Translations under genes and position numbers: made by a program
The notes under the pieces: model-generated
Seen by the model: only the letters and a program-made list of their open reading frames with translations
Told to the model about the DNA's origin: nothing
Database searches by the model: none
DNA from: Alphaproteobacteria bacterium
GTDB taxonomy: Bacteria > Pseudomonadota > Alphaproteobacteria > Thalassobaculales > Thalassobaculaceae
Reading direction: 5' to 3'
Assembly: GCA_024742275.1 (NCBI GenBank)
Contig: JANSYS010000011.1
Location: 62,001-126,000, forward strand
Length of the DNA stretch: 64,000 nucleotides
Part shown: piece by piece, positions 57,473-64,000 of the stretch
Layout: the number at the start of each line of letters is the position of its first letter
Position numbering within the stretch: the first letter of the stretch is position 1

Positions 57473-57548
57473 CCGCTGACACAATCGACCCGTCGGACAA
57501 CCCCGCCCACCGATAGGTCGACTGTCAGATCAAGTCCCTACTTTTACA
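57413..57548 (+). mobile_element. IS481-family right-end fragment
   Basis: It contains the last 20 codons of the transposase and the terminal sequence GACTGTCAGATCAAGTCCCT followed by ACTTTTACA. The outer 74 bases are repeated at 59721-59792 with a few changes. The element end abuts IS256 DNA at 57546-57548, which indicates insertion into that older element. Confidence 0.75.
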
Positions 57549-57723
57549 CGATAGCCGTTCCGCTGCACCTCCCGCAGCGGCGAGCGTGCGCCTTCGCCGC
57601 GCCCGTGCGCGCCTCCACCTCCATCTCCATGATACGATCGGCCTCAAAGGCCAGCATGTCGCGCACGAAGTCGCTGTCGGCCTGCTTCTCAATCAGCTCG
57701 ATCAGCGCCATTCTCTCGTCGGT
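57544..57723 (-). pseudogene. IS256-family transposase N-terminal remnant
   Basis: From ATG 57723 the minus strand reads MTDERMALIELIEKQADSDF and continues EVEARTGAAK, the start of IS256/Mutator-type transposases. After that the frame is lost: shifting by one base restores ARSPLREVQRNGYR, the next conserved block, so one base is missing in a short C run on the plus strand near 57591. The gene then ends abruptly where the IS481 right end begins. The catalytic part is missing. Confidence 0.8.
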
Positions 57724-57932
57724 CATCGTCGTCTCCATTGTCCGTTCCAGGTGTTGCAACCCGAACCTTCTCCGAAGATCGGCGATGACCGACAGCGTCG
57801 AACTCGGCCGCGAGCTGCGCTAAGCCGGGGGCTCCGCGCGCGGCCTCCTACACCACCACTCGGGACACTGCCTGCATTTTTGCTCCGGTGTTGACAGGAG
57901 GACGGACAGAGCAACAAAAAGGCCTGACCACC

Positions 57933-58610
57933 TCATTGACGCGACCTCCGCCATCCGGCCTTTCGGGCCTCATCCTCGGAACAGAACCATCGCTCGCCCC
58001 TGGATTCGTCAATTCGGGTTGGCCCATAATCTCGCCCGGCCGGCATATGATAGATCCTGTCGCCGCTCCGGCTGATGTTCCCTTTGATCTGGCAGGCATC
58101 GCCAGCTGGACCTGATGTCGATTCCGCCGTAAGTCTTTCTCCGCGGCGCCATCTCGAGGGCTCGATGAAACGGCCCGCCCAAATCCCAGCTTTCGCCACC
58201 TGGGCAGTTCCTTCGTCGTCGATATAATCACGCGAGTATCGGCGGTAGGCGATGGCCCAGCCCTGGCGGACCATCCAGGCATTAAGCTCTATGTTCCCGA
58301 GGCGGCACACGGCGACGATCCTTTTGTAGCGATCTATATCGAGTTGCTCGCATCGGACCGTTGCCTGCCCGATCTTGTCGGAAAGCGCCAGAGCGGCCTG
58401 CTGGCCGCAGCGGTATTGTTTCCCTTCCTTCTCGCAGAACTGCCCGCTCTCTGGGGCGTCGATCCCGTGGAGCCGGATGCGCCGTCCTTGAATATCGAGC
58501 GTATCGCCATCGATAACACTGGCGACGCCGACGACCGGCGACTGCGCGGCAGCGGTCCCGACGGCCGAACTTGCCACCAGCAGCACAAATATGAGGCGCG
58601 GTAGCGTCAT
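57933..58610 (-). CDS. Secreted thermonuclease-like (SNase) protein
   Basis: Protein of 225 residues. The signal peptide MTLPRLIFVLLVASSAVGTA is followed by a staphylococcal-nuclease-type OB fold: ASVIDGDTLDIQGRRIRLHG, GIDAPE, then EQLDIDRYKRIVAVCRLG and NAWMVRQGWAIAY, with the catalytic Asp/Arg/Glu positions visible. The C-terminal tail (CQIKGNIS, YHMPAGRDYGPTRID, RWFCSEDEARKAGWRRS) is common in nucleases carried by mobile elements. Its ATG overlaps the preceding gene's stop. It probably cuts nucleic acids in the periplasm or outside. Confidence 0.9.
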   Translation of the reverse strand: MTLPRLIFVLLVASSAVGTAAAQSPVVGVASVIDGDTLDIQGRRIRLHGIDAPESGQFCEKEGKQYRCGQQAALALSDKIGQATVRCEQLDIDRYKRIVAVCRLGNIELNAWMVRQGWAIAYRRYSRDYIDDEGTAQVAKAGIWAGRFIEPSRWRRGERLTAESTSGPAGDACQIKGNISRSGDRIYHMPAGRDYGPTRIDESRGERWFCSEDEARKAGWRRSRQ

Positions 58611-59047
58611 CGGCCGATCCGTCGCGGTTCGTCGACTTCTTCGGCCTCGCCGGTCTCGCCGTGCACTTCCTCCCGAATGACTTTTTCCGTGATTTCGGAA
58701 AGATAGGAGGTCAACGCGTCGCTCAGCGCTTCAAACTCGGGCCAGAGGACCTGCTCGACGAAGCTCTTTGGCGCCTTGATGATGATGGTTTGGCGGTGCA
58801 TCCGGCGATAACGGAAGGGGCGAATCCCGTAGCGGCGGCACAACGCGACAAACAGCTGTTGGGACCATACGTCCGAGATCGAGAATTTTACCTCGATCTC
58901 CTTCTCCTTGCCGGCGGCCTGGCTCAGGCGATCGCGGATGCGTTCCGCCGCAGCGCCAGCGGCGACACGCTCGCCCTCAGTCGCGGCGCCCGAGAAAAGG
59001 GCCTCGATCTTGCGCAGCTTCTCCCGGAGCAATTGCTCAGGCGTCAT
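58607..59047 (-). CDS. Conserved protein with N-terminal DUF2786-like helix
   Basis: Protein of 146 residues from ATG 59047 (MTPEQLLREKLRKIEALFSG), with GGGAA six bases upstream; the frame is open to 59113. The N-terminal REKLRKIEALFSGAATEGER resembles the DUF2786/DUF7168 start found in phage and plasmid proteins. The middle EIEVKFSISDVWSQQLFVAL, CRRYGIRPFRY and TIIIKAPKSFVEQVLWPEFE fit the same group. The function is unknown. It overlaps the nuclease gene start by four bases and follows the small membrane protein gene. Confidence 0.75.
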   Translation of the reverse strand: MTPEQLLREKLRKIEALFSGAATEGERVAAGAAAERIRDRLSQAAGKEKEIEVKFSISDVWSQQLFVALCRRYGIRPFRYRRMHRQTIIIKAPKSFVEQVLWPEFEALSDALTSYLSEITEKVIREEVHGETGEAEEVDEPRRIGR

Positions 59048-59078
59048 TCTTGGTTCCCATTGAGCTAGCGCCCATTCG

Positions 59079-59282
59079 TTAAAACGTCGCCCACCGATAG
59101 ATGCCGAGCACATTTATTGCAGTGAACGCGACCTGCAGCACGACCAGACTTGGCTCGCGGTGGATCCAGCCGACCGCGCTCCACAGGAGTGAGGATATCA
59201 GAAATAGACCGAATCCCACGGCTACAGCGCCGATATTGAGCGCGATCAGAACTGCGCCGGCGACACCGGTCGCCGTGCCCAC
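59079..59282 (-). CDS. Small two-helix membrane protein, possibly 5'-truncated
   Basis: Protein of 67 residues with two or three hydrophobic segments (GAVLIALNIGAVAVGFGLFL, LVVLQVAFTAINVLGIYRW). The ending NxxGIYRW is typical of small membrane proteins common in alphaproteobacterial mobile DNA. The only start is GTG 59282. The frame upstream (SAIPAEWVG) stays open for ten more codons and then meets a stop close to the left end of the IS481 copy, so the true start may have been removed by that insertion. Confidence 0.65.
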   Translation of the reverse strand: MGTATGVAGAVLIALNIGAVAVGFGLFLISSLLWSAVGWIHREPSLVVLQVAFTAINVLGIYRWATF

Positions 59283-59289
59283 CCACTCC

Positions 59290-59792
59290 GCTGGAATTGC
59301 AGAGGTCTCGACCTAATCTGACGCATTTAATGGACTAGTGGGGATTGGGCCTTCTGGCCGGGGGATCGCCCCGGCCAGAAGGCGACAGAGGAGCCCACAA
59401 TGACACGAGAGTAGAGGATCATCCGCAACAAGGTCGGCGTTCTCGATCTGGCCAAGCAGCTCGTCAACGTTAGCCAAGCGGGCAAGATCGAGCAGGCGGT
59501 GCTGGACTTGGCACTGAAGAAACCGACCTGGGGCCAGAAGCGGGTGTCGAACGAGCTGCGCGAGCGCCGCCTGTCGATCTCGGCGTTCGGGGCACGCAGG
59601 GTGTGGCAGAGCCTCGACCTGCAGAACATGAAGAAGCAGCTGAAGGCCCTGGAAGCCCAGGTCGCCCTGGACGGCGTAATCCTTACCGAAGACCAGCTGG
59701 CGGCGCTCGAGAAGGCCAAGGCTGACACAATCGACCCGTCGGACAGCCCGCCCGCCAATAGGCCGACTGTCAGATCAAGTCCCTACTTTTAA
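59290..59792 (+). mobile_element. Internally deleted IS481-family copy (non-autonomous)
   Basis: The left end (ATCTGAC near 59316) and the right end (GTCAGATCAAGTCCCTACTT near 59769) are both present, but only about 500 bases remain of an element normally near 1.1-1.3 kb. The transposase begins at ATG 59400 as MTRE, hits TAG (normally a Gln codon), then reads RIIRNKVGVLDLAKQLVNVS. An in-frame gap of about 35 residues follows before GQKRVSNELRERRLSISA. After LAALEKAKAD it jumps to the terminal DNA, losing the whole catalytic domain. Confidence 0.78.
59349..59383 (+). repeat. Perfect 15-base inverted repeat before the IS481 transposase start
   Basis: GCCTTCTGGCCGGGG (59349-59363) and CCCCGGCCAGAAGGC (59369-59383) flank the loop GATCG, 16 bases before the ATG at 59400. 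Such leader hairpins can block read-through expression of transposases by hiding the ribosome site or stopping outside transcripts. Confidence 0.85.
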
Positions 59793-60111
59793 ACCTAACG
59801 ACCTCAACTGACCCAGTTATCCTGACGGCAGTCAGCCAGCCGGCGACTTCTGCAACGCAATGACACACCCTCCAACGCCCACGAAAGGCATTGGTGATCT
59901 GTGGCGGCGTTTTGTCAAAAAGGGATAAAATGAATCAACTTCGCAATCACCCCGTCCCTTCTTGACGGGCCGTCCAGGTAGGGGGCGATGAGCGGCCACG
60001 AGCGCCGTCTTCAGCCCCGCGTCAATCAGATGATTTTCTATCACAAACCGGCCGATAAAGACCTGCCCCGGAGACTCACTCTCCGGGGCAGGTTTGTTTT
60101 TAGCTGACCGT
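59793..60111. other. Intergenic region with orphan terminator
   Basis: There is no convincing gene in these 319 bases; the short frames lack family sequence and ribosome sites, apart from a 39-codon frame starting near 59988 whose end coincides with the hairpin. The only strong feature is the terminator at 60061-60101. Confidence 0.5.
60061..60101 (+). terminator. Strong rightward terminator with no evident upstream gene
   Basis: ACCTGCCCCGGAGA and TCTCCGGGGCAGGT pair perfectly over 14 bases around CTCAC, then TTGTTTTT follows. It is a near-ideal intrinsic terminator for a plus-strand transcript. No plus-strand gene ends just before it, so it may end a small RNA or transcripts coming from the IS481 copy. 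Confidence 0.85.
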
Positions 60112-60807
60112 CTAGACTGAAGCCCAGTGGAACTCCTCCGACACAAGCCGTACGCTGAAGATCAGCAACCGAACCCCACTCGCGACCAGGTAGCGCTCCA
60201 TCATTCGGGCGAGCTCATTCACATCATCTCGGCGATTGGCGAAGGGCCCAATTTCGCCTGGGCGGCGTGTGGCCTCGAGCGCGTGTTCAATGGTCGCCTG
60301 CTGACTGTCCGTCAGAGTTTCCTTGGGTTTTTTGCTCCGATAGTGGGCGCTGACCGTGACACGTCCATCTTCGATCTGAAGATGGAACACCCCGACCGAA
60401 TCCCTCGGCAGGCCTCTCGCCTCTCGTGTCGGTATCGGCTGCGAAATAAGCGACGCAAGCATTGAGATAACGGTGGACGGCACCGGCTGTACAGCGGAAG
60501 GCTGTGATGGGGGGGTAAGGTCCAGGCATTCCAACAGCAGCGGCCGCAGCGCGGTTTGGAGATTGTCGATCCAGGTTACACAATCGGGGTGGCCGGCCTG
60601 GGAGGCACCGGCCGCCTCGCCGTCGATCAGCAGTGGCCGTTTGGCGCTGTAACTTACAGATTTGGGTCGGGATACTCCTTTCAGAGCACGGCTGAGCGGC
60701 ACCAACGGCTGTTGTGGCAGCGAGGGAAACAGGTCCCAGGCCAGGTCCAGATATCCCCCGTCGCTTTCGGTGAGTCCGTAGTCCGTGATGTCGTAATCAT
60801 AGTTCAT
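60112..60807 (-). CDS. Hypothetical protein downstream of the recombinases
   Basis: Protein of 231 residues; ATG 60807 has GGAG six bases upstream. The acidic N-terminus (MNYDYDITDYGLTESDGGYL), a proline-rich middle and the predicted helix KETLTDSQQATIEHALEATR are visible; no family is recognised. It is the third leftward gene after the two recombinases, 79 bases from the second one, so it may be an accessory or direction factor of the same module. It has no membrane segment or signal peptide. Confidence 0.65.
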   Translation of the reverse strand: MNYDYDITDYGLTESDGGYLDLAWDLFPSLPQQPLVPLSRALKGVSRPKSVSYSAKRPLLIDGEAAGASQAGHPDCVTWIDNLQTALRPLLLECLDLTPPSQPSAVQPVPSTVISMLASLISQPIPTREARGLPRDSVGVFHLQIEDGRVTVSAHYRSKKPKETLTDSQQATIEHALEATRRPGEIGPFANRRDDVNELARMMERYLVASGVRLLIFSVRLVSEEFHWASV

Positions 60808-60886
60808 GACAGTCTCCTCATGTGAAGAGACGCAACAGGATGCGTGCGCCTCGTCAGAGGCGGCGCACGTATCCTGTGTGGATCGC

Positions 60887-61915
60887 CTACCCGGCTTCCA
60901 GTCGGGCGGTTTCGATCAGGGCTCCAACCCGGCGTGACGCTGTGAGCCCCGCTGCTGTTTCGGTGTAGGCGCGCATGGAATTCGGGTCCCGATGGTTTAG
61001 GATCCGGGAGGCCAGGCCCGCCTGGTTGGTGATTTCCTCGACAACGAAGGTTGCGGCAGCATCCCGGAGCCGGTGCGGCGTGACAGCTATCCCGAACGCC
61101 GGCTGAGTGAGCTTGCGCATTGCCGCTTGGATTGCGCCAAACCCCATCGGCCGGCCTCCCTTTGCCACCCACAGAAGATCATGATCGCCGGCGACGATAG
61201 GTCGGATATCGGTGATCCACCGCGCCAGCGCAGGCCTGAGGAATCCGGGTACGAGCCGGGTCGACGGCTCCGCCGTCTTTTGAAATTCGGTCGGGATTTT
61301 CACAGCACTGCTGTCATCAGCAATCCAACTCAGGCGGATCGCTTCAAGCGCCCGGAGACGTTCCGGGCAAACACTGGCAAACGCCAGAAACAGGCCGTCC
61401 CGGTAGGACTGGATTTCCGCCCAGCGACCGCTCTCGGGCGCTGAGGCCCGCATCGTCGAGAACGCCAGCTCGAGCAAAGGCTCGACCGAAACGTACCGAT
61501 CGGCTTTGCGTTTGCGGGTCCGTTTGGCGGCCGCGCCAACCCGTTTGGCAGTTGCCAGCAGCCAATCGAATTCGCCGGTGCTCACGTCTCGGAGAATTGT
61601 CGTGACTTTCCAGAGCGACCACACATATCCGGAGATCGTGATGACTGAGCAGCCGAGGTTTTCGGTCGATTGAATGAACCGCTGGAGCCCGTCCGGGGAC
61701 AGGTCCTCAGCCACACCGCTGTCTCGGCAGACGTCCAGGTAGCGAGTATATACACCGCCATTTTGGTATTGAGTTACTGGAGCCCAACAAGGTTCGACCC
61801 CGAGGAGAACCTCGGGGTCGAAGGCTTTGATCCAAGCCGCCTGGTCCTTCTCAGACCAACCAGCACAGCGCTGCCGGACCAGCTCTGAGCTGGTCCGGCG
61901 GATGATCGACACCAT
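60887..61915 (-). CDS. Tyrosine recombinase/integrase
   Basis: Site-specific recombinase of 342 residues. The catalytic-domain signs are the first Arg in ERLRALEAIRLSW, HRLRDAAAT (HxxR), the His in ILNHRDPNSM and the nucleophile Tyr in RAYTETA. The N-terminal 150 residues are the arm-type/core-binding helical part. ATG 61915 has GGAG upstream. It starts nine bases after the larger recombinase gene, so both are made together. The 5' side beyond 64000 may hold more of the module. Confidence 0.9.
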   Translation of the reverse strand: MVSIIRRTSSELVRQRCAGWSEKDQAAWIKAFDPEVLLGVEPCWAPVTQYQNGGVYTRYLDVCRDSGVAEDLSPDGLQRFIQSTENLGCSVITISGYVWSLWKVTTILRDVSTGEFDWLLATAKRVGAAAKRTRKRKADRYVSVEPLLELAFSTMRASAPESGRWAEIQSYRDGLFLAFASVCPERLRALEAIRLSWIADDSSAVKIPTEFQKTAEPSTRLVPGFLRPALARWITDIRPIVAGDHDLLWVAKGGRPMGFGAIQAAMRKLTQPAFGIAVTPHRLRDAAATFVVEEITNQAGLASRILNHRDPNSMRAYTETAAGLTASRRVGALIETARLEAG

Positions 61916-61924
61916 TGCTGGCTC

Positions 61925-63949
61925 CTATTCGTCATCGGATGTTGGTGAGGCGAAGACCGATCTGATTTTGGACGCTAAGGCTTGGTGATAGAGCCTCTGG
62001 CTGATCACATCGTTGATCTTTGCGTAATAAGACAACGTTGTTGTGATCGACGCATGGCTGAGAATCTGGCTCACCAGCGGGATTGCCGACGGATCCTGAT
62101 CGAGCACGATCTTGGCGGCAATATGCCGGAAAACATGGCAGTCGAGCCGGATTCCGCCTCGCTTCCAGGCTCGGCCTGAGATGTTTTTGAGCACGAGTGT
62201 CCCGGATCGCGGGCTCTGGCCCTTCGCAGGGAACAGGTAAGGATTGTCGGGATCAGATCCGACCGCTGCCATCAACTGGGGGCGAATTTTGTCGACATAG
62301 ACCCGGATCCGCCGTGACACGCCCACAGGCAATTCTGCCGCAATGTCGCGAGCACCGGTTTTGGTTTCAGAGCGAGAGATCCGGATTCGGATCGGCTGCC
62401 GGGGATCGGTCGGGATGCTCATTGAAGGATCAGGCCCACCGATACGAAGCCCCTCGACAAGATTGGCCCGCCTTATCGGGCAGACTTGCAGGATCGCAAT
62501 GGCAATCGCCGTCAGGCCGTCGACCCGTTCGGCCGCGGTTAAAGCCTTGCTGCGTCGCAGCTTGCTTTCCAAGGGTTTGAAGAGTGTTTCCGGCAACTGC
62601 AGGAACGCGCGAAGCTTGGTATGGCCGGCTTCGCCAGAGAACTGCTCCAACATTTCTGCATGCAGGGGACCCATTTTTTCTGACGCGTACACTGGCCTAT
62701 AACCACCTCCTCGCGGATCCCGCTTCATTTTGATGATCGTCGGGTCTAGTTGGTTGCGCAGCTTCAGCAATGCGTCGATATCACGGTCCGTCCGGCCAGC
62801 GATCCGGCTCAGCGTGATGAGGCTGGTGAGGACCGATTTGAGTGTGGCGTTTTTGGGTTGGTATTCCTTGCCTTGGGCCGCAGACCGCGCCTTTTGTGCG
62901 GCCCGCTTGGTGGCGATGACTTTGCCGATCGCCTCGTGCGACAGGCAGTCGAAAAGCGTTGTTGGCGTTCGACCGTCCTCGATTTCTGCCCAGGCAAGCG
63001 AGGTAAAGAGACCCTTGAAATTCCGCATTGTGTTCGCCGCGTAGCCCGAGACCGAGATTCCCGCGCCGGCGAAGAGGGAGGCATAGGGGTCGTTTGACGA
63101 AACGACCAAGGACGCGAGGCTGTTTCCGCCGAGCGTCCGGTTCCCGTATTCGGCCTCGAAGTCGGCCCAGATCTTCTGAACCTCGTCGGGCAGATCGGTG
63201 AAACGCCGAACTATCGGACCGCGCATCTTTGCAAGGTCGGCTGGCGCAGTGAGTCGTTTAAGGTGATGCGGAGGTAAGCGTGTGGCGACTGCATTCCACG
63301 CATAGACGGTGGCTCCGACGCTTGCTCTCGGGTTCTCAAGGCCCCTGACGGCAGACGCATCGACCAGCATGTCGACGACTGACTGCCCGACCTCGGACGG
63401 GCTCAAACCGTCCCGGGATGCCAGGCGAACCAGTGGGTAAATCTTCGCCAGTTGGCCACCCAGACCGATTGCTCTCGCATCTTGGAATACAGCGGCCCAC
63501 TCTGCTGGAAGCTCCGAAGCCCTGAGCGTCTGGCGGCGCGCCGGATCGAGAAGGCTGGCGAGAAAGAGAATCCGGGAGCGCCGTGAGGCGTACGATCCCA
63601 CCGACATACCGAAGTCGCAGTGCGTGAGACCGTCGAGCAGTTTCTTGATCGCGCGACGGCTGGCTGGGAAGGCGGTCAGCGCATCCGGATTCTTGTGTAT
63701 CCGCCGCGCCAGAGCTCGTGCATCGCCGATCGCGCGGCGTTTGGATCTCTTTGCCAGACCGGTCGATATAGCAAGCTCAAGAACCTCGGCTGCATCGGCG
63801 AGGGTCGGAGAACCCGTACTCACGCGTTCGGCCACGCCAGCCGGTACAGCCGGAAGTGCGAGCGCCCAGCGAAGGCCCTGGCGGGTCTCGCAGACTCTAT
63901 CGTCGGCACCATGGCAGATCGCCGCCTCAACCGAGCGAAACGAAGCCAT
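61925..63949 (-). CDS. Large tyrosine recombinase/integrase, possibly extending past the window
   Basis: Recombinase of at least 674 residues, nearly twice the usual size. The C-terminal catalytic domain has the Arg in CPIRRANLVEGL, HVFRHIAAK (HxxR), the His in LSHASITTTL and Tyr in SYYAKI. The first 400 residues are helical with no assigned domain. ATG 63949 lacks a good ribosome site, and the frame stays open with protein-like sequence (YARAALANARKINPES) to the window edge, so the true start may lie outside. It precedes the second recombinase by nine bases. Confidence 0.88.
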   Translation of the reverse strand: MASFRSVEAAICHGADDRVCETRQGLRWALALPAVPAGVAERVSTGSPTLADAAEVLELAISTGLAKRSKRRAIGDARALARRIHKNPDALTAFPASRRAIKKLLDGLTHCDFGMSVGSYASRRSRILFLASLLDPARRQTLRASELPAEWAAVFQDARAIGLGGQLAKIYPLVRLASRDGLSPSEVGQSVVDMLVDASAVRGLENPRASVGATVYAWNAVATRLPPHHLKRLTAPADLAKMRGPIVRRFTDLPDEVQKIWADFEAEYGNRTLGGNSLASLVVSSNDPYASLFAGAGISVSGYAANTMRNFKGLFTSLAWAEIEDGRTPTTLFDCLSHEAIGKVIATKRAAQKARSAAQGKEYQPKNATLKSVLTSLITLSRIAGRTDRDIDALLKLRNQLDPTIIKMKRDPRGGGYRPVYASEKMGPLHAEMLEQFSGEAGHTKLRAFLQLPETLFKPLESKLRRSKALTAAERVDGLTAIAIAILQVCPIRRANLVEGLRIGGPDPSMSIPTDPRQPIRIRISRSETKTGARDIAAELPVGVSRRIRVYVDKIRPQLMAAVGSDPDNPYLFPAKGQSPRSGTLVLKNISGRAWKRGGIRLDCHVFRHIAAKIVLDQDPSAIPLVSQILSHASITTTLSYYAKINDVISQRLYHQALASKIRSVFASPTSDDE

Positions 63950-64000
63950 AGACTCTGGATTAATCTTGCGGGCGTTCGCCAGCGCGGCACGGGCATAATG

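What the first reader, a model, noticed from the sequence alone, without database searches (positions are those of the whole stretch)
60112..64000. Tandem recombinase module: oversized and normal tyrosine recombinase plus accessory gene
Two complete catalytic domains (674+ and 342 residues) nine bases apart and a third co-directional gene recall multi-recombinase mobile units such as Tn554 (TnpA/B/C) or recombinase-in-trio elements. Order and sizes differ from both, and the larger protein has a 400-residue unassigned N-terminal part. The frame remains open at the window edge, so a third recombinase could follow. This may be a new type of mobile unit.
Basis: partly seen in the sequence, partly recalled or inferred. 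Interest (0 to 1): 0.6.

Follow-up and report, generated by a model that had tools for sequence, protein, structure and literature searches.

The report
Paired tyrosine recombinases with dyad site
The window ends in a real four-gene DNA-recombination cassette (a small DNA-binding protein, a long and an ordinary tyrosine recombinase, and an unknown protein) bordered by a conserved inverted-repeat site; it belongs to a family of paired recombinases in Alphaproteobacteria that differs from the known multi-recombinase elements compared here, but whether it moves DNA or resolves joined circles is not shown.

Summary
Observation confirmed. The long frame runs past the window edge to 745 codons, but no third recombinase follows: upstream lies a 70-aa HTH_17 (excisionase-like) gene overlapping it. 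Operon: HTH, YR-L (745), YR-S (342), 231-aa protein; then a hairpin; then an inverted repeat, GTCAAAAAGGG-N31-CCCTTCTTGAC (59914-59966). YR-L, YR-S, third gene and repeat recur in three further modules in two genomes (YR-L 33-77% identical; one module split between contigs, one cut in YR-L). Homology between the two closest stops at the repeat.

YR-L and YR-S form sister clades apart from the Tn554-type, SE and RIT recombinases tested; long before short reverses the order in the fetched Tn554-type and SE loci. Catalytic residues are kept. Relatives with mostly shorter YR-L occur in other Alphaproteobacteria and on plasmids; in 14 of 25 such records a large serine recombinase gene follows, and 9 of 23 carry a repeat of the same spacing before YR-L.

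Best reading: a heteromeric tyrosine-recombinase module acting on its own dyad, for excision/integration or multimer resolution. New variant of a known kind. No empty site, second end or activity was shown.

The parts
59914..59966 (.). 53-bp dyad: arms GTCAAAAAGGG (59914-59924) and CCCTTCTTGAC (59956-59966), 31 bp apart; putative recombination site and left border of the module
   Evidence: same geometry 145/143/98/94 nt after the third gene's stop in window, C122, C23 and C60; homology to G010:C122 ends here
60059..60095 (.). strong terminator-like hairpin between operon and dyad
   Evidence: -31.2 kcal/mol, z -5.5, minus strand; one search lists it on the + strand (16 pairs; the scan as a whole found 5 sites, as many as in shuffles), so it may serve either direction; a similar hairpin is seen in C122
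60112..60807 (-). 231-aa accessory protein, function unknown; homologues follow YR-S in all 4 modules of this clade
   Evidence: no Pfam, NCBIfam or PADLOC match; PHROGs only E 0.33
60887..61915 (-). YR-S, ordinary tyrosine recombinase, 342 aa, catalytic set complete
61925..64000 (-). YR-L, long tyrosine recombinase; continues beyond the window to 64162 equivalent (745 aa, GTG start overlapping the stop of a 70-aa HTH_17 gene at 64159-64371 equivalent)

Best explanation
A self-contained site-specific recombination cassette of about 4.5 kb (59914 to 64371 equivalent). Shown by sequence: operon HTH_17, YR-L, YR-S, accessory protein, ending near a conserved 53-bp dyad. Inferred: YR-L and YR-S, which come from one duplication and have stayed together, work as a heteromeric pair; they bind the two arms of the dyad, whose centres lie 42 bp (about four helical turns) apart, and exchange strands between them, probably beside the outer arm, where 8 bp are not conserved; the HTH_17 protein sets direction as a recombination directionality factor, and the 231-aa protein is an architectural helper. 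The reaction most likely excises and integrates the element that carries the module.
For: YR-L, YR-S, third gene and dyad occur together in 4 modules in 2 genomes, the window's included; one is split between contigs C81 and C60, one (C122) is cut in YR-L. Start/stop overlap of HTH and YR-L in window, C23 and C81. Catalytic residues kept. YR-L and YR-S are sister clades, 98/97 and 92/76, with the reference recombinases outside (97/95). Of 385 genomes of the class, the YR-S profile finds 11, all among the 12 found with YR-L. A dyad of 53 bp outer-to-outer stands upstream of YR-L in 9 of 23 other loci, against at most 4 at any spacing in 100 shuffles. Window/C122 identity is 3-8 of 20 in each of eight 20-bp bins outside the dyad and 12-19 in the nine bins from the dyad inwards, with 0 of 8 next to the outer arm. 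HTH_17 at 46.3 bits.
Against: Only one dyad per module was found in either genome, so a second end is missing. No empty site was found with two flank searches. Plasmid relatives, one beside ParA and replication genes, fit multimer resolution as well. In the sister branch the dyad lies between HTH and YR-L, where it could be an operator; and 14 of 23 loci there did not pass the dyad test at 53 bp. The loose dyad pattern is not specific by itself: its reversed control gave more hits (13 against 10). AlphaFold2 models are too poor to use (mean pLDDT 43.7 and 47.2). No activity data.
Confidence: 0.5

Rival explanations
1. Multimer or cointegrate resolution system: the pair acts like XerC/XerD or TnpI/TnpS systems (recalled), resolving dimers of a circular replicon or island at its single dyad; the module came to its present contigs with plasmid or island DNA.
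For: One dyad per module; pair with an annotated HTH gene on 7 fetched alphaproteobacterial plasmid loci without a serine recombinase (two of them, L068 and L069, with the same YR-L accession), one next to ParA and replication genes; dyad also in some of these (L121; weaker L068, L119).
Against: Arms 31 bp apart, not the short core spacing of dif-like sites (recalled); four copies in unlike contexts; homology ends at the dyad as at an integration border.
Confidence: 0.3
2. The dyad is a regulatory operator for the HTH_17 protein or for the recombinases, and the true recombination sites lie elsewhere.
For: In the sister branch it lies before YR-L, in eight of the nine loci that pass 35-104 bp before its start codon, mostly with the HTH gene upstream.
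Against: In the window clade it lies beyond the operon and its hairpin; homology between window and C122 ends at it.
Confidence: 0.12
3. A member of the Tn554-related, SE, GInt or RIT elements.
For: Long plus ordinary co-directional recombinases and a further small gene, as in Tn554 (PMC3414803, PMC10214605).
Against: Order reversed against 4 of 4 fetched Tn554-type pairs and one SE-type locus; proteins outside those clades; third gene unlike TnpC or Srap; HTH gene upstream, no third recombinase. GInt proteins were not compared.
Confidence: 0.05

Closest known systems
Tn554-related elements (TnpA/TnpB/TnpC; long plus short pairs of PMC3414803)
   Same: Long recombinase (611-828 aa) beside one of about 350 aa, co-directional, often with a third small gene
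   Different: Short before long in the 4 fetched examples (pNL1, three in pBD2); recombinases and third protein not related beyond what I take for the generic catalytic domain. An HTH leader under 90 aa was not looked for there
SE, strand-biased circularizing integrative elements (IntA, Tfp, IntB, Srap)
   Same: One ordinary and one large recombinase plus an auxiliary protein; inverted-repeat ends
   Different: No Tfp here; order differs; no clear sequence relation; [quoted passage not shown]
GInt (GinA-D)
   Same: Several recombinase genes in one operon with a small protein
   Different: Three recombinase-type genes against two here; the authors of PMC10214605 found no ginC-ginD block in Alphaproteobacteria, whereas PMC5385486 mentions Alphaproteobacteria; sequences not compared here
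RIT elements (RitA/B/C)
   Same: Adjacent recombinase genes, inverted repeats
   Different: Three recombinases of 311-410 aa in the fetched one against a 745/342 pair; outside this clade in the tree
XerCD/dif and transposon resolvases of the tyrosine type (recalled)
   Same: Two related recombinases acting on one dyad site
   Different: Long N-terminal part, own HTH gene, arms 31 bp apart

Membership tests
Tn554-related elements | Co-directional long plus short tyrosine recombinases, both with catalytic residues | tested here: met
Tn554-related elements | Gene order short, long, TnpC | tested here: not met
   Order here long, short; 4 of 4 fetched Tn554-type pairs are short first
Tn554-related elements | TnpC homologue as third gene | tested here: not met
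   Profile of the four third proteins against TnpC of pNL1 and pBD2: E 0.69 and 0.87 in a set of 18 proteins
Tn554-related elements | Recombinases group with TnpA/TnpB | tested here: not met
   Tree of 52 catalytic domains: YR-L plus YR-S set apart at 97/95; long branches among references, bootstrap not quite settled
SE | intA-tfp-intB-srap operon | tested here: not met
   Compared with the four-gene locus fetched from pAQU1, which I read as its SE; third protein against Srap E 0.69, recombinase profiles against Tfp E 0.1 at best
SE | Strand-biased circularization with 6-bp footprint, no empty site | not testable with these tools
   Needs experiments
GInt | Three integrase-type genes plus GinD in one operon | tested here: not met
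   Two recombinases, HTH upstream, 231-aa protein without recombinase match; GinA-D sequences not compared
RIT | Three adjacent recombinases of similar size | tested here: not met
Paired YR-L/YR-S family (grouping proposed here) | YR-L and YR-S of the two sister clades, long first | tested here: met
Paired YR-L/YR-S family (grouping proposed here) | HTH_17 gene directly upstream | tested here: met
   Window; by profile, adjacent upstream in 16 of 30 records
Paired YR-L/YR-S family (grouping proposed here) | Dyad of about 51-55 bp near the operon | tested here: met
   Window clade 4 of 4 modules, C60's weaker; others 9 of 23 at 53 bp; five new loci: 2 yes, 2 no, 1 not to be judged
XerCD/dif-like multimer resolution | Resolution of dimers at a single site | not testable with these tools
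   Single dyad per module fits

The most novel reading that the evidence does not exclude
An undescribed class of mobile or maintenance modules in Alphaproteobacteria: an HTH factor and two duplicated tyrosine recombinases, long first, that act together on a dyad with arms four helical turns apart. One branch (the window's) pairs them with a new accessory protein; another has placed them in one operon with a large serine recombinase aimed at a tRNA-Met gene, a hybrid tyrosine/serine system in which two unrelated recombination chemistries are co-expressed.
Probability: 0.4. Interest if true: 0.75.

Novelty: new variant of a known kind. Interest (0 to 1): 0.5.

Why it matters
If right, two catalytic tyrosine recombinases with separate roles act on one simple, fully written-out site, which gives a small test system for the question why Tn554-like elements need a long and a short recombinase. 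The operonic joining of tyrosine and serine recombinases in the sister branch would be unusual and directly testable. It would also let annotators tell these modules from Tn554, SE, GInt and RIT elements.

Tried and rejected
Rejected: a third recombinase upstream (HTH gene instead); Tn554, SE and RIT membership; viral origin (no relatives confirmed in viral contigs); a known defence gene among the seven proteins scanned (no PADLOC match at E 0.1).

Led nowhere: structure prediction of YR-L and of the 231-aa protein, each with a two-row alignment (pLDDT 47.2 and 43.7), so no fold search was made; solved-structure profile search of the third protein (best E 0.48); for YR-L mostly Xer catalytic domains; C23's third protein gave one Pfam match under its cut-off (T4 RegB, 17.6 bits against 27), which I do not rely on; the 231-aa protein in plasmids (no match); Rfam on four loci (0); tRNA genes in window and L019 (0); flank searches for an empty site (own contig plus short or diverged partial hits in G000, G030, G038, G039; only itself); a repeat of the tRNA end elsewhere in L097 and L102 (the twelve longest exact matches listed were all the tRNA itself; the 40-nt scan with up to 6 mismatches found no second copy there).

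Results that weaken my reading: the dyad pattern with up to 3 mismatches gave 10 hits (6 places) in 4 of 36 genomes, of which two places, in G034 and G037 with 3 mismatches, have no module found beside them, while the reversed control pattern gave 13 hits in 9 genomes; the places with 2 or fewer mismatches on one strand are the four beside modules. In C60 another pair of arms, 53 bp overall, scores as well as the dyad (the dyad's two mismatches counted by hand). In one search the loci are not independent (L045/L047 and L048/L050 are close) and one of the nine 53-bp hits (L122) does not resemble the others. In one search a further bin, 180-199 bases inward, falls to 5 of 20, which I take for a gap since blastn runs on. 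A first tree dropped 5 of 52 rows, all references (three TnpB-type, SE IntA and IntB), for short domain hits; one search repeats it with all 52, the ends of those five set by hand.
Full report
Observation. The three minus-strand genes are as described. The window is bases 62001-126000 of a 128,598-base contig. Right of the window the long frame continues to a GTG, 745 aa, which overlaps the stop of a 70-aa gene whose product matches Pfam HTH_17 at 46.3 bits. Start and stop of the same two genes also overlap in G010:C23 and G000:C81. No third recombinase follows; further right lie + strand genes including another, ordinary integrase cut by the contig end.

Same-clade copies. A YR-L profile matched 6 of 36 genomes of the family at E 1e-10; matches along the whole profile were three places, and one long fragment, in the own genome and in G010. 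One contig of G010 (C23) has the same length, 114,072, as the only distinct locus found in genome contigs, of a MAG titled 'Alphaproteobacteria bacterium isolate bin.41', and I take them to be the same (there 113 stretches matched a pattern and 2 encoded a relative). Modules: G000:C17 (window); G010:C122 (YR-L 77%, YR-S 77%, third protein 73% identical, YR-L cut); G010:C23 (33, 39 and 19%); and G000:C81 plus C60, whose contig ends hold HTH and YR-L (35%), and YR-S (41%) and third gene (19%), and look like two halves of one module. The third gene was found at these four places in 2 of 36 genomes (the order-level sample held the same number of genomes as the family). A further relative, G050:C9 (739 and 345 aa), has neither an adjacent HTH gene nor the third gene by profile.

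The dyad. Behind the third gene and a strong hairpin stands GTCAAAAAGGG-N31-CCCTTCTTGAC at 59914-59966. The same arrangement, 11-bp arms 31 bp apart, starts 145, 143, 98 and 94 nt after the third gene's stop in window, C122, C23 and C60. Taking the best 53-bp dyad in each 300-base flank, 2, 0 and 1 of 1000 shuffles did as well for window, C122 and C23, but 28 of 1000 for C60, where another pair of arms ties. Aligned in register, window and C122 agree in 3-8 of 20 bases in each of eight bins outside the dyad and in 12-19 of 20 over the next 180 bases (then 5 of 20, probably a gap); the outer arm is identical, the next 8 bp agree in 0 of 8, and the remaining 23 spacer bases in 16. blastn likewise begins inside the dyad. 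This is what a recombination border looks like, but I found no second dyad (the loose pattern itself is no more frequent than its reversed control, 10 hits against 13) and no empty site.

Wider family. In 385 genomes of the class, a profile of three YR-L matched 12 (E 1e-10; the two best candidates per genome scored) and a profile of four YR-S matched 11 (E 1e-15; five best), all of them among the 12; the twelfth, G074, has a run of N in its YR-S region (L101). A broader YR-L profile matched 7 of 398 genomes drawn from the phylum, all of the same class; I could not see how many genomes of other classes the draw held. Sixteen of 72,556 plasmid records match at E 1e-5, ten of them Roseomonas, none over 80% of the query. 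The catalytic domains form two sister clades, YR-L 98/97 and YR-S 92/76, with 13 Tn554-type, SE and RIT recombinases outside (97/95, all 52 rows). The members were chosen by profiles of the two families, so the clades are partly expected.

Three flavours. (1) Window clade: HTH, YR-L of about 740 aa, YR-S, third protein, dyad behind. (2) In 14 of 25 other records a large serine recombinase gene lies behind YR-S: 8 of 8 loci from the family-level searches (L043, L045-L051), 5 of 9 from the class-level search (L096-L104; one cut by its contig, one with a run of N), 1 of 8 plasmid loci. In L097, L099 and L102 its start overlaps the stop of YR-S; in L046 a 257-aa ORF intervenes; L043, L047 and L049 hold shortened ORFs, L048 is cut by the end of the stretch and L070 has broken frames. 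Two such proteins were checked in Pfam: Resolvase, Recombinase and Zn_ribbon_recom. Of the 10 loci in which the gene reaches a natural 3' end, 8 hold there, antisense, the 40-nt 3' half of a tRNA-Met gene within 6 mismatches (L045, L046, L050, L051, L070, L097, L098, L102; not L099, L100), and ARAGORN calls the whole tRNA-Met (cat) in L070, L097 and L102. That it is the initiator tRNA is my recalled reading. (3) Plasmid loci: annotated HTH gene and pair without serine recombinase in 7 of 8 (L068, L069, L118-L122). In flavours 2 and 3 a dyad of the same geometry often stands before YR-L: with 10-bp arms and at most one mismatch, 9 of 23 loci at 53 bp, against a maximum at any spacing of 3 or fewer in 99 and of 4 in 1 of 100 mononucleotide shuffles. 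Of five further loci, L170 (53 bp, 2 mismatches) and L171 (56 bp, 0 mismatches) have one, L172 and L177 do not, and L173 could not be judged. Arm sequences differ between branches; the spacing is what is shared.

Mechanism. Shown: gene content, order, catalytic residues, dyad, homology border. Established knowledge (recalled): tyrosine recombinases act as tetramers on paired dyads, at times as two related proteins (XerC/XerD), and small HTH_17/MerR-like proteins serve as excisionases. Inferred: the heteromeric pair uses the dyad; the HTH protein sets direction; the 231-aa protein is a helper. Excision/integration and multimer resolution remain open; I lean to the first because homology ends at the dyad and the module stands in unlike contexts.

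Comparison with what is known. PMC3414803 (passages and section 10 seen) describes long (611-828 aa) plus short (about 350 aa) pairs related to Tn554, mostly in Actinobacteria and in Novosphingobium, with an N-terminal extension of over 400 aa without recognizable domain. I fetched a pNL1 pair and three pBD2 pairs, an SE-type four-gene locus from pAQU1 and one RIT from pHG1; the names I give these loci rest on the papers' lists and on gene order and size. In the four Tn554-type pairs and the SE-type locus the shorter recombinase comes first. Profiles of the window clade give weak similarity to them (best E 2e-5 among 18 proteins); profiles of the wider family reach E 2.6e-11 and 7.8e-11 (a pBD2 TnpA), which I take for the shared catalytic domain; the third protein shows no match to TnpC or Srap. 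GInt: of PMC5385486 I saw the abstract, the first of six parts and section 11; of PMC10214605 the abstract, passages and the first part of Background; GinA-D sequences were not compared. PMC8138268 and PMC11476347: passages only.

Print check. Eight full-text searches listed no paper whose title or abstract start describes the HTH, long, short order, or two tyrosine recombinases with a serine recombinase in one operon; one listing was cut (15 of 34 papers), and most subscription papers and bioRxiv preprints are not held, so this is weak evidence of novelty.

Verdict. A real and ordered system, a new variant of multi-recombinase modules, with one striking neighbour (the tyrosine/serine operon). 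Interest 0.5.

Noticed in passing
L045 5075-6748, L050 4311-5978, L097 3604-5250, L099 3959-5656, L100 8617-10233, L102 7984-9634 and others: Large serine recombinase genes behind the tyrosine-recombinase pair, three of them (L097, L099, L102) with overlapping start and stop codons.
   Followed up: partly
L097 3571-3647, L102 9591-9667, L070 9207-9283: The serine recombinase genes end antisense inside a tRNA-Met 3' half, which suggests that the element integrates there.
   Followed up: partly
L044 1036-1824, L041 9246-10079, L042 2912-3739: Proteins of 262-277 aa near three of the modules, in differing positions and orientation; the first two share about 80% DNA identity, the third only a similar C-terminal end by eye. 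L041's and L042's were scanned in Pfam and PADLOC without a match over a cut-off.
   Followed up: partly
G000:C81 start and G000:C60 start (L042, L077): Two contig ends that look like the halves of one module, split within about the first 50 codons of YR-S.
   Followed up: partly
L019 8717-10598: Right of the module: a 278-aa unknown gene (no Pfam match), an excisionase-like gene (by eye) and a separate ordinary integrase cut by the contig end; the module may be nested in another island.
   Followed up: no
window 57500-59800: Transposase-like fragments (by eye) and short repeats left of the dyad; a 74-bp piece of window 59721-59794 recurs at 57475-57549 at 92%.
   Followed up: no
L068, L069, L118-L122: Roseomonas and Pukyongiella plasmids carry the HTH plus pair, in L122 next to ParA and a replication initiator gene.
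   Followed up: partly
G000:C60 3119-5173 (L077): A 684-aa integrase of another type beyond the dyad of the C60 half-module, with an HTH-like gene before it by eye.
   Followed up: no
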